From: Phycisphaerae bacterium
GTDB taxonomy: Bacteria; Planctomycetota; Phycisphaerae; Phycisphaerales; SM1A02
Length of the DNA: 64,000 nucleotides
Direction: 5' to 3'
Assembly (NCBI GenBank): GCA_016795035.1
Contig: JAEUIT010000025.1
Coordinates: 53,485-117,484 of the forward strand
The translations under genes and the position numbers were made by a program. The notes under the pieces were generated by a model. The model was not told the origin of the DNA, searched no databases, and saw only the letters and a program-made list of their open reading frames with translations. The number at the start of each line of letters is the position of its first letter. Positions within the stretch are counted from its first letter, which is position 1. Positions 1,370-63,531 of the stretch are shown piece by piece.

Positions 1370-2605
1370 TCACGCACACGGTCCCCACGCGCCCAGCAGT
1401 GTGCCGAGATCGGCGCCGTCGGTCGTGCCGTTGCCGTCGATGTCGCCGACACCGGGGCCGCCCCAATTGCCTAACAGCGTGCCGAGGTCGGCGCCGTCGA
1501 CCGTACCGTTGTCGTCGAGATCGGCCGGGCACGCGGGCGCGGGGGGATCGAGGATCACAGCGAACGCGGTCGTCGCGGCGCCGTTCCTCGCGATGCCGAC
1601 GATCGTGTTGCCGTCGCTCGAGATGTCGAGCGGAAGCGCGAGCACCGTGTTTGCCGGAATCGTGACGCCACGATTCGTGAGCCAGGTGTTGAGGTTCACC
1701 ATGCCGTCTTCGGGCGTCCAGATGAAGCTCTGGCCGAACGTCGCTGGGCCGGGGAACGGGCGATAGAAGAGGACGATGCGCGAGCCGTCGGCGTTCGACG
1801 CGACCGCCGCGCCGCGCCAGCCGGCCGTCGGCGCCGGGCCGATGTTGATGCCGCCGGTCGCCGCGCTCCAGCGCCACGCCTGGAACGAGTTCGCGCTCAC
1901 GCCGTTGCCCACGGCCCACACGCCGTCGGCGGAGATGTCGCTCGCCTCGCCTAACACCGTCGCGGTCTGTCCGAGCTTGATGATCGTCTGCACGCCGTCG
2001 ACCCACACCGCGCCCTGACGGAAGCCCGTCGACGCGTCTTGCCAGCCGGCGACCACGTTGCCGTCGAAGTCGACCGCGTTCGCGCGCGAGCTGCGGCCCG
2101 CGACCGTCGAGCCGAGATCGAATGTGCCTTTGCCTTCCGACCACTGCGTCGCATGCGCATTCGCGCACGACAGCCAGCCAAGACCGACGACCGCCGTGCC
2201 GTCGCCCGAGATGCCCCAACCCGACGACGTCTCCGTGCTGCACGGCGCGCCGATGCCGCCGAGCGGCGTGCCGATGGCGGCCACCGTGTCATAGAAGCCC
2301 ATCTCGTAGAAGCCGCTGAAGTCATCGAGCAGCGTGAACGCGACGCGCGTGCCGTCGTCCGAGATCGACGCCTCGCCGCCGACCGCGTTGCCGGGCGACA
2401 CGCCGCCGATGAACTGCACCCCGCCGGAGGCGGTCCAGATCCAGTACGGCGCACCGGCCGCGCCGTAGCCCGCGACCGTTCCGTTGTTCGCCGCGCCGGA
2501 CGCCGTCAGGCCGTTGCCGATCGCGTAATAGGTGCCGCCTCCGGGAGCGCTGGGGGAGGCAAGGGCTGCAACGGCGATCGCGAGTCCGATGGGGAACAAC
2601 TTCAT
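1370..2605 (-). CDS. Secreted HAF-repeat protein with C-terminal dockerin-like module
   Basis: The start ATG at 2605 gives a clear signal peptide (MKLFPIGLAIAVAALASPSA). The body (411 residues in all) contains several HAF-type repeats of the form ISDDGT-VAF, GISGDGTAVVG and DISADGVWAVG, which usually build a beta-propeller in exported bacterial proteins. The last 55 residues hold two calcium-loop helices, DLDDNGTVDGADLGTLLGNWG and DIDGNGTTDGADLGTLLGAWG-like, each with the Asp/Asn spacing of a dockerin loop. Such GC-type dockerin modules end many Phycisphaerae exported proteins, and their partner is not known. One dispersed TGCAACGNNGA motif (2567-2577) lies in the signal-peptide codons. A paralogue with the same architecture lies at 40219. 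Expected location is outside the cytoplasm; substrate unknown. Confidence 0.88.
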   Translation of the reverse strand: MKLFPIGLAIAVAALASPSAPGGGTYYAIGNGLTASGAANNGTVAGYGAAGAPYWIWTASGGVQFIGGVSPGNAVGGEASISDDGTRVAFTLLDDFSGFYEMGFYDTVAAIGTPLGGIGAPCSTETSSGWGISGDGTAVVGLGWLSCANAHATQWSEGKGTFDLGSTVAGRSSRANAVDFDGNVVAGWQDASTGFRQGAVWVDGVQTIIKLGQTATVLGEASDISADGVWAVGNGVSANSFQAWRWSAATGGINIGPAPTAGWRGAAVASNADGSRIVLFYRPFPGPATFGQSFIWTPEDGMVNLNTWLTNRGVTIPANTVLALPLDISSDGNTIVGIARNGAATTAFAVILDPPAPACPADLDDNGTVDGADLGTLLGNWGGPGVGDIDGNGTTDGADLGTLLGAWGPCA

Positions 2606-2706
2606 GACGGACGCTCCAAGGAGTGATTGAGATGAGGGCACTGGACGGACGTTCGTAGCGTACGGCGCGAGGGCGGAGCCGCAAGCGCGAATGCGGGCGG
2701 TCGTCG

Positions 2707-62776: not shown

Positions 62777-62784
62777 CGCGGCGC

Positions 62785-63531
62785 TCAACGGTCGGCGTCG
62801 GGAGTGCGGCGCCGGGCACCGATGGCTGCAACGACGAGCCCGAGGAGGGGCAGCGCGCTTGCCACGAGCGCCAAGGCCCAGAACGGCGGATCGGCGCCGT
62901 CGGTTCGAGACAGCAGTCGGACGGCTGCAACGTAGAAGAGGGCCATCGGAAGGCTTGCCGCCAACGTGAGCGGCAGATAGACGCGCCAGAAGGGCACACG
63001 GTGCGCGCCCGCGAGAATCGCGAGTTCCTCCGCAAGGATCGGAACCGCTCGCGTGCAGGCGTAGGCCCACAGGCCCCAGCGGCCGAACGAACGGTCGGCC
63101 CGTTCGAGCGCGTCGGCACCGACGACGCGCTCGAGTGCGGCGCGGCGGAGAAGGCGGCCGAGAAGCCAGCCCAACGTGGCGCTCGCGGCGCTTCCGCCGA
63201 CGATCGCGGCGACGGCGTACGTCGGATCGAGCATGCGGGCGGCGAATGTCGCCACGACGCTCGAGGGAATCGGAAGCAGGATGTCGCTCGCGAGAAGGCC
63301 GGCGCACAGGGCGGCTATCGACATCGGGGACCCCTGCGCCGCGAGCGCGGCATCGCTCCACGTTGCAAGCGGATCCTCGAGCAACGCGAACGACGCGATG
63401 ATCGGAATCGCGAGGACGACTAGGAGCGTGAGCGCGAGCCGCCGTGGCGTCGCGACAAGAGCGCGCAGTCGAGGCTCGACGCCGGTCGGTGTGGGAGGGT
63501 CGGCGGACATCGGCGTCGGAAATCGTCGCAT
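62785..63531 (-). CDS. DedA/VTT-family membrane protein
   Basis: The 248-residue protein has about six hydrophobic segments and the VTT-like words LLASDILLPIPSSVVATFAARML, GGSAASATLGWLLGRLL and YACTRAVPILAEELAILAGAHRVPFWRV. The acidic Glu pair in ILAEELAILAG and the preceding Arg-Pro-(V/I)-Pro are the re-entrant-loop hallmarks of the DedA superfamily, whose members flip lipids. The ATG at 63531 or 63510 may be the start. It diverges from the next gene. Confidence 0.8.
   Translation of the reverse strand: MRRFPTPMSADPPTPTGVEPRLRALVATPRRLALTLLVVLAIPIIASFALLEDPLATWSDAALAAQGSPMSIAALCAGLLASDILLPIPSSVVATFAARMLDPTYAVAAIVGGSAASATLGWLLGRLLRRAALERVVGADALERADRSFGRWGLWAYACTRAVPILAEELAILAGAHRVPFWRVYLPLTLAASLPMALFYVAAVRLLSRTDGADPPFWALALVASALPLLGLVVAAIGARRRTPDADR

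What the first reader, a model, noticed from the sequence alone, without database searches (positions are those of the whole stretch)
2567..63367. A previously undescribed highly iterated motif, TGCAACGNNGA, about one copy per 1.2 kb
Seen directly: 54 exact copies on both strands (34 on +, 20 on -), in genes of unrelated families, between genes and in terminators, plus about three dozen near copies that differ only at the first T. With 34% G, 34% C, 16% A and 16% T, about 0.4 copies are expected in 64 kb on both strands, so the excess is over 100-fold. The motif is read in different frames and strands (for example as SALQ, AVAA, LHVA, CNAE, VQRG), so selection acts on DNA, not on a peptide. 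Established knowledge: DNA uptake sequences in Neisseria and Haemophilus show this density, this spread and this decay into near copies. Inference: an uptake or other DNA-recognition signal of this planctomycete lineage. Alternatives are a nucleoid-protein site or a modification motif.
Basis: partly seen in the sequence, partly recalled or inferred. Interest (0 to 1): 0.93.

Follow-up and report, generated by a model that had tools for sequence, protein, structure and literature searches.

The report
Species-specific DNA-uptake tag
One bacterial genome carries 2,929 scattered copies of the same short DNA word, which likely works as a tag that lets the cell recognise and take up DNA from its own kind, as is known in two unrelated bacterial families.

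Summary
TGCAACGNNGA occurs 54 times in the window (shuffles: mean 0.47) and 2,929 times in the 4.86-Mb genome, against 138 for the reversed word. The logo is about GSCTGCAACGNNGAG. In 581 other genomes, 180 of them from its family, density stays at or below about 0.03 per kb, against 0.60 here.

Sites lie on both strands, in and between genes; all six readings are enriched (371 in genes, 3.8 expected from codon usage). Against the one congener held, sites arose by substitution in place, in less conserved stretches, at an amino-acid cost. 19% of GTT codons sit inside the word. Two small contigs that look phage-like have none. The longest stretch read shows no strand polarity. ComEC, DprA, secretins and prepilins are model hits.

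The congener has its own scattered word, CCTAACRNTTCGYTCR (305 hits, 27 in nulls; 54% of its TTA codons).

Best reading: a species-specific DNA-uptake sequence; my paper searches found none reported outside Neisseriaceae and Pasteurellaceae. Uptake and receptor are untested. Inverted pairs are rare, unlike DUS. A methylation-linked, HIP-like process is the main rival.

The parts
2567..2577 (+). motif copy 1 of 54, TGCAACGNNGA
3091..3101 (+). motif copy 2
4195..4205 (-). motif copy 3
4703..4713 (-). motif copy 4
6391..6401 (-). motif copy 5
6857..6867 (+). motif copy 6
7145..7155 (-). motif copy 7
8040..8050 (+). motif copy 8
8802..8812 (+). motif copy 9
8871..8881 (+). motif copy 10
9543..9553 (+). 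motif copy 11
10009..10019 (+). motif copy 12
10591..10601 (-). motif copy 13
11970..11980 (-). motif copy 14
15411..15421 (+). motif copy 15
16140..16150 (+). motif copy 16
16560..16570 (-). motif copy 17
16702..16712 (+). motif copy 18
19056..19066 (+). motif copy 19
19540..19550 (+). motif copy 20
20947..20957 (+). motif copy 21
20974..20984 (+). motif copy 22
21619..21629 (+). motif copy 23
23344..23354 (-). motif copy 24
29716..29726 (+). motif copy 25
32423..32433 (+). motif copy 26 (inverted pair with copy 27)
32437..32447 (-). motif copy 27
34104..34114 (-). motif copy 28
34541..34551 (-). motif copy 29
36268..36278 (-). motif copy 30
38607..38617 (-). motif copy 31
40588..40598 (+). 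motif copy 32
42372..42382 (+). motif copy 33
43473..43483 (+). motif copy 34
45083..45093 (-). motif copy 35
45948..45958 (+). motif copy 36
46356..46366 (+). motif copy 37
51020..51030 (+). motif copy 38
51053..51063 (+). motif copy 39
52645..52655 (-). motif copy 40
54248..54258 (+). motif copy 41
55108..55118 (+). motif copy 42
56693..56703 (-). motif copy 43
56731..56741 (-). motif copy 44
59266..59276 (+). motif copy 45
59302..59312 (+). motif copy 46
59695..59705 (+). motif copy 47
60351..60361 (+). motif copy 48
60971..60981 (-). motif copy 49
62073..62083 (-). motif copy 50
62702..62712 (+). motif copy 51
62827..62837 (+). motif copy 52
62926..62936 (+). motif copy 53
63357..63367 (-). 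motif copy 54
23355..29715 (.). motif-free stretch; the three of its genes that were scanned are isocitrate dehydrogenase, a SIMPL-domain protein and a TIM-barrel protein

Best explanation
The genome is sown with 2,929 exact copies of TGCAACGNNGA (logo about GSCTGCAACGNNGAG), which likely act as a DNA uptake sequence: a minor pilin on a type IV pilus is predicted to bind the word on free DNA, so that DNA from the cell's own species would be preferentially pulled in, passed through ComEC and recombined. Shown here: the genome-wide excess on both strands; its confinement to this genome among 582; sites that differ from the congener by substitutions in place, in less conserved stretches; its absence from two small phage-like contigs; no strand polarity over 280 kb; a set of competence-type genes; and a different scattered word in the congener. 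Inferred: that biased uptake plus recombination drove the accumulation, and that the gain was in this lineage. Untested: uptake preference and the receptor.
For: Genome-wide, both strands: 2,929 copies against 138; 935 matrix hits against 85 in nulls in 792 kb. Unique: 581 other genomes at or below about 0.03 per kb. DNA-level selection: 371 sites in genes against 3.8 expected under independent codons, all six readings enriched; 184 of 971 GTT and 277 of 1,601 GCA codons lie inside the word. Substitution, not insertion: 119 of 131 sites align to the congener without gap; gaps 9.2% against 7.4% in random blocks. Cost and permissive placement: amino-acid identity 49.0% at motif codons, 55.4% in flanks (paired difference -6.4 points, 95% interval -11.3 to -1.4, p = 0.015), 59.1% in random blocks of the same genes; density falls from 0.73 to 0.39 per kb from the least to the most conserved genes (Spearman -0.15, p = 0.027). 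Foreign-looking DNA poor: 0 copies in contigs C10 and C30 (13.7 kb together); a 17.5-kb gap over a polysaccharide locus. One orientation favoured in genes, 237 to 134, as reported for known uptake sequences (PMC2346458, part 1 of 3). No polarity over the longest stretch: 87 + and 80 - in 280 kb. Machinery: ComEC, DprA, four secretins, a ComEA-like helix-hairpin-helix protein, 33 prepilin-type matches, T2SSE-family ATPases. The congener carries its own scattered word.
Against: No uptake assay or receptor. The same genes occur in relatives without the word (ComEC in 37 of 41 genomes; DprA in 11 of 11; 32 prepilin-type matches in the congener). DUS genomes carry many inverted-pair copies (PMC3630211, passages); here 6 pairs within 60 bases among 457 sites. 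Decayed copies are not graded: observed/expected is 27.7, 1.57 and 0.75 at 0, 1 and 2 mismatches, with no excess at G1, A3, A4 or C5, whereas DUS and USS forms stay over-represented well past one mismatch (PMC1939737, passages). Known uptake words or dialects are shared by related species; this one is in one genome. On shorter stretches orientation is uneven (C65 50 to 33, C40 24 to 13); I ascribe this to gene direction but did not model it.
Confidence: 0.6

Rival explanations
1. A HIP-like process: a lineage-specific DNA methylase recognises the word (or its core), and methylation-dependent repair converts near matches into perfect copies and maintains them.
For: HIP1 is highly iterated in cyanobacteria, is replaced in some species by another word together with a methylase for it, and its one-base deviations sit at the outer positions (PMC4390886, passages). 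Here too one-base deviations pile up at the first T (300 against 80 in an equal length of congener DNA), at A10>T and at C2>A, and not at G1, A3, A4 or C5.
Against: HIP words are palindromes; this one is not and has a two-base gap. Graded preferences reach three bases upstream, which fits a binding surface better than a methylase (inference). The two methylases seen lie on contigs that hold no copy of the word. Methylases were not searched genome-wide, so one specific for the word may exist.
Confidence: 0.17
2. Chromosomal binding sites for a cytoplasmic protein: a Chi-like recombination signal, a segregation (KOPS-like) signal, or a nucleoid protein site.
For: Chi is a known class of over-represented word (PMC4390886, passages); KOPS is recalled. 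PDDEXK_1 nuclease domains, which AddB and RecB carry (recalled), occur in the genome (2 hits).
Against: No strand polarity over 280 kb (87 to 80), although C65 (50 to 33) and C40 (24 to 13) are uneven. The nuclease domains also occur in the congener, which lacks the word. The amino-acid cost and one-genome distribution are not expected of a conserved enzyme's signal.
Confidence: 0.13
3. Insertions of a tiny mobile or repeat element, or a repeated peptide motif.
For: High copy number; one reading (x-x-V-A, often L-x-V-A) makes up 184 of 371 genic copies.
Against: 119 of 131 sites align without gap to the congener and gaps are about as common as in random blocks. All six readings are enriched 11 to 345 fold, and V-A is written GTTGCA 218 times among 2,495 V-A pairs although GTT and GCA are rare codons.
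Confidence: 0.02

Closest known systems
DNA uptake sequence (DUS) of Neisseriaceae, read by the minor pilin ComP
   Same: Short non-palindromic word in over a thousand copies, on both strands, with genic copies and one orientation favoured in genes; type IV pilus and ComEC-type genes; different words in related species.
   Different: Unrelated word and host; word confined to one genome; inverted pairs rare; no receptor identified; uptake not shown.
Uptake signal sequence (USS) of Pasteurellaceae, receptor candidate ComN/PpdA
   Same: Core plus graded flanking preferences, and accumulation by point substitution in permissive stretches.
   Different: Unrelated word and host; mismatched forms fade after one mismatch; receptor unknown here.
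HIP1 and alternate HIPs of cyanobacteria
   Same: Genome-wide iteration, species-specific replacement words, deviations at outer positions.
   Different: HIPs are palindromes tied to methylases; this word is asymmetric and gapped, and no methylase for it is known.
Chi sites
   Same: Iterated short asymmetric word.
   Different: Chi is recalled as shorter and polar relative to replication; here no polarity over 280 kb, with an amino-acid cost.

Membership tests
DNA uptake sequences (DUS/USS) | Genome-wide excess of a short non-palindromic word on both strands | tested here: met
   2,929 copies against 138 reversed
DNA uptake sequences (DUS/USS) | Sites arise by point substitution, not insertion | tested here: met
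   119 of 131 ungapped; gap rate close to random blocks
DNA uptake sequences (DUS/USS) | Sites lie in permissive stretches | tested here: met
   Identity 49.0% at the site, 55.4% flank, 59.1% random blocks
DNA uptake sequences (DUS/USS) | One orientation is commoner in genes | tested here: met
   237 opposite, 134 same, p = 1e-7
DNA uptake sequences (DUS/USS) | Host carries type IV pilus and DNA-import genes | tested here: met
   not specific, relatives carry several of them too
DNA uptake sequences (DUS/USS) | Mismatched forms over-represented, falling with mismatch load | tested here: inconclusive
   27.7, 1.57, 0.75 at 0, 1, 2 mismatches
DNA uptake sequences (DUS) | Inverted-pair copies in terminators in high numbers | tested here: not met
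   6 inverted pairs within 60 bases among 457 sites in 792 kb
DNA uptake sequences (DUS/USS) | Word or dialect shared by related species | tested here: not met
   None of 180 other family genomes; the congener has another word
DNA uptake sequences (DUS/USS) | Tagged DNA is taken up preferentially | not testable with these tools
   Needs a culture or a heterologous assay
DNA uptake sequences (DUS/USS) | A surface receptor (minor pilin) binds the word | not tested
   33 prepilin-type matches found; none singled out
HIP-type methylation words | Word is palindromic | tested here: not met
   TGCAACGNNGA is not its own reverse complement (sequence)
HIP-type methylation words | A methylase specific for the word is in the genome | not tested
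   Two methylases were met by chance on contigs C10 and C30; no genome-wide search
Chi / KOPS | Strand polarity along the replichore | tested here: not met
   87 + and 80 - over 280 kb of contig C47; shorter contigs C65 and C40 uneven; replichores unknown in a draft genome

The most novel reading that the evidence does not exclude
A third independent origin of uptake-sequence-guided natural transformation, in a high-GC lineage outside Neisseriaceae and Pasteurellaceae, in which each species of one genus has evolved its own word (CTGCAACGNNGAG here, CCTAACRNTTCGYTCR in the congener) and so its own sexual barrier.
Probability: 0.5. Interest if true: 0.92.

Novelty: new variant of a known kind. 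Interest (0 to 1): 0.82.

Why it matters
Uptake sequences are described from two bacterial families (listing, PMC7811141), and why they evolve is unsettled. An independent case, with near relatives that lack the word and a congener with another word, would allow comparative tests of how such words start, spread and diverge.

Tried and rejected
Insertion element or tandem repeat: rejected by the ortholog alignments. Peptide motif: rejected by the six readings and codon choice. Hairpin terminators as a general feature: not found. Even spacing: not found; spacing is slightly over-dispersed (CV 1.18). One window protein with three copies was compared with homologs of 77-80% identity; two of its three motif peptides are conserved in nearly all homologs anyway, so this settles nothing. 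Words of similar strength in 20 relatives, 20 kb each: none as clear. The strongest words there were tandem or clustered repeats (G037, G048, G020); G006 GCGATCAAC (9 copies, 0.55 expected) and G010 CCTGCTGG (13 copies, 1.35 expected) are scattered and were not followed. This test would miss a word as thin as the congener's. I first took the congener's CTAAC word for integron attC sites; only 2 of 305 have an attC-like right end, so this was dropped.

Full report
THE OBSERVATION. The window holds 54 exact copies of TGCAACGNNGA, 34 on + and 20 on -, where shuffles give 0.47. The whole genome (4,857,979 bases, 99 contigs, 94% complete, unnamed) holds 1,461 + 1,468 copies; the reversed word has 59 + 79. 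A position matrix refined on 792,152 bases of this genome finds 935 hits against 85 in reversed and complement-only nulls, about 1.07 net per kb, which extrapolates to about 5,200 in the genome.

UNIQUENESS. The exact word was counted in 60 relatives, 391 other genomes drawn from the phylum, 180 others of the family and 11 genomes reached through loci of another scan: 581 distinct genomes by their handles. The highest count I read is 176, in an 11.4-Mb genome, and the highest density is about 0.03 per kb, against 0.60 per kb here. The only held congener, G001, has 69 in 5.0 Mb (reversed word 34). Some relatives exceed their reversed control several fold at low density (for example 58 against 2 in G441), probably because the reversed word ends in ACGT and is itself rare there; the within-genome comparisons do not depend on it.

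SELECTION ON DNA. With a home-made gene caller (594 genes, 84% coding), 371 of 457 exact sites lie inside genes and 86 between genes (0.56 and 0.68 per kb). Codon usage, taking codons as independent, predicts 3.8 genic sites. Each of the six readings is enriched, by 11 to 345 fold. The word runs against the gene in 237 cases and with it in 134 (p = 1e-7), and 60 sites fall in the first tenth of genes where about 37 would be even. Of 971 GTT codons 184, and of 1,601 GCA codons 277, lie wholly inside the word; V-A pairs are written GTTGCA 218 times of 2,495.

HOW SITES AROSE. 1.6 Mb of the congener gave 226 aligned pieces holding 131 sites. 119 align without gap; 4 of those are intact in the congener, and 75 differ at 3 to 5 of the 9 fixed positions. 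Gaps (9.2%) are close to random blocks (7.4%). Amino-acid identity is 49.0% at the site, 55.4% in flanks and 59.1% in random blocks; the paired difference is -6.4 points (95% interval -11.3 to -1.4, Wilcoxon p = 0.015). Sixty shuffled words (96 sites) show little dip (62.0% against 63.3%). Density is 0.73, 0.58, 0.64 and 0.39 per kb in genes of 35-45, 45-55, 55-65 and over 65% identity. Since the word is at background in the rest of the family, gain in this lineage is the simple reading.

NEAR COPIES. Observed over Markov expectation is 27.7, 1.57, 0.75 and 0.89 at 0, 1, 2 and 3 mismatches. Set against equal lengths of congener DNA, one-base deviants are in excess at T0 (300 against 80), C2>A (55 against 2.5) and A10>T (54 against 6), slightly at G6>A and G9>A, and not at G1, A3, A4 or C5. 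A strict reader with a tolerant edge fits this. The lack of a graded tail differs from what is reported for DUS and USS, and the edge-biased deviants also resemble HIP1.

PAIRS. Among 457 sites, 6 inverted pairs start within 60 bases of each other (two of them overlapping copies) against 15 same-strand pairs. DUS-style terminators are therefore not a general feature, though one inverted pair in the window (32423 and 32437) can fold into a hairpin.

WHERE IT IS MISSING. Contigs C10 and C30 (4.2 and 9.6 kb) have none. On C30 the three proteins scanned are a ParB-fused N6/N4 methylase, a serine recombinase and an NrS-1-like polymerase; on C10 the one protein scanned is another ParB-fused methylase. 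Other long gaps that I annotated cover a polysaccharide locus (17.5 kb), a region with IMP dehydrogenase and T2SSE ATPases (18.7 kb), a region with DnaK (14.4 kb) and the start of C65 with RCC1 and kinase-TPR proteins (10.4 and 12.2 kb; the copy between them lies in a protein 85% identical to the congener's). Further gaps (C6 10.8 kb, C47 10.0 kb and shorter) were not annotated. Foreign or constrained DNA is a plausible but untested cause. Orientation over 280 kb of C47 is 87 to 80; C65 (50 to 33) and C40 (24 to 13) are uneven.

MACHINERY. By hidden-Markov models: ComEC (37 of 41 genomes, including this one), DprA (11 of 11), four secretins (congener five), 33 prepilin-type matches (congener 32), two T2SSE ATPases on C80. 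A ComEA-like helix-hairpin-helix protein is a model hit with a membrane helix by my reading. PilB, PilC, PilT and a GspE-to-L-like operon were recognised by my reading of translations. The set is shared with relatives, so it permits the uptake reading and does not prove it.

THE CONGENER'S OWN WORD. In 1.59 Mb of G001 a different word, CCTAACRNTTCGYTCR, has 305 matrix hits against 27 in nulls; this genome and 20 relatives (20 kb each) are near background. Hits are scattered (71 of 80 loci, median spacing 1.9 kb), 231 inside genes, 41 at edges of called genes, 33 between genes (49 expected); 2 of 305 have an attC-like right end; 20 of 23 aligned sites of a narrower pattern are ungapped. 166 of 306 TTA codons in the congener lie inside it. 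Both words contain AAC followed by a purine. Two species of one genus with two different scattered words resembles DUS dialects, though this word is thinner (about 0.17 per kb) and strongly favours one reading (183 of 231); TAA and TAG stops forbid some of the others.

COMPARISON WITH PRINT. DUS and USS are ascribed to Neisseriaceae and Pasteurellaceae (PMC7811141, abstract start in the listing; PMC1939737, passages); one orientation is commoner in genes (PMC2346458, part 1 of 3); DUS dialects share a CTG core and occur as inverted pairs in terminators (PMC3630211, passages); receptors are minor pilins, ComP shown and ComN predicted (PMC12616744, passages); HIP words track methylases (PMC4390886, passages). 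Searches for uptake sequences or such words in planctomycetes returned no paper. Broader ones listed 5, 17, 6, 4, 2 and 20 of 23 papers; apart from the five named as read in passages or in part, they were judged by titles and abstract starts only, and none announces such a system in another lineage. The library holds open-licence papers only.

VERDICT. A real, genome-wide, lineage-specific iterated word under selection at the DNA level, best explained as a DNA-uptake sequence (0.6), with a methylation-linked process as the main rival (0.17).

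Noticed in passing
G001 loci L039-L058, L099, L242-L301: The congener carries its own scattered word CCTAACRNTTCGYTCR, about 0.17 per kb; 54% of its TTA codons lie inside it.
   Followed up: partly
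G000 C65:44365-44443, C5:22430-24067, C47 and other contigs: Runs of TGACTCC units on both arms of what look like intergenic hairpins; CTGACTCCT occurs 85 times in 792 kb, in clusters.
   Followed up: partly
window 1470, 1950, 13152, 27610, 28500, 31870, 42952: TGTTAGG/CCTAACA is moderately over-represented in this genome too (25 CCTAACA against 2.6 expected in 792 kb).
   Followed up: no
G000 contigs C10 and C30 (L071, L073): Two small contigs with ParB-fused N6/N4 methylases, one also with a serine recombinase and an NrS-1-like polymerase; no copy of the word.
   Followed up: partly
L230 (G020) 8161-16656: Four copies of the palindrome AGGTGATCACCT in 20 kb and two inverted GCACGCCAA/TTGGCGTGC pairs 27 bases apart: another repeat system in a relative.
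   Followed up: no
C65:1-22582 of the own genome, upstream of the window: A 22-kb stretch with a single exact copy of the word, holding RCC1, kinase-TPR and cupin proteins.
   Followed up: partly
own genome, 792 kb read: Among exact copies starting within 100 bases of each other, 23 pairs are on the same strand and 10 on opposite strands.
   Followed up: no
loci, for example L105-L107, L142, L169: Many hits of the paired pattern are in Deltaproteobacteria, Polyangia and Myxococcales; I suspect Cys-Asn-Asp-rich repeat proteins (reading CNDD), not checked.
   Followed up: no
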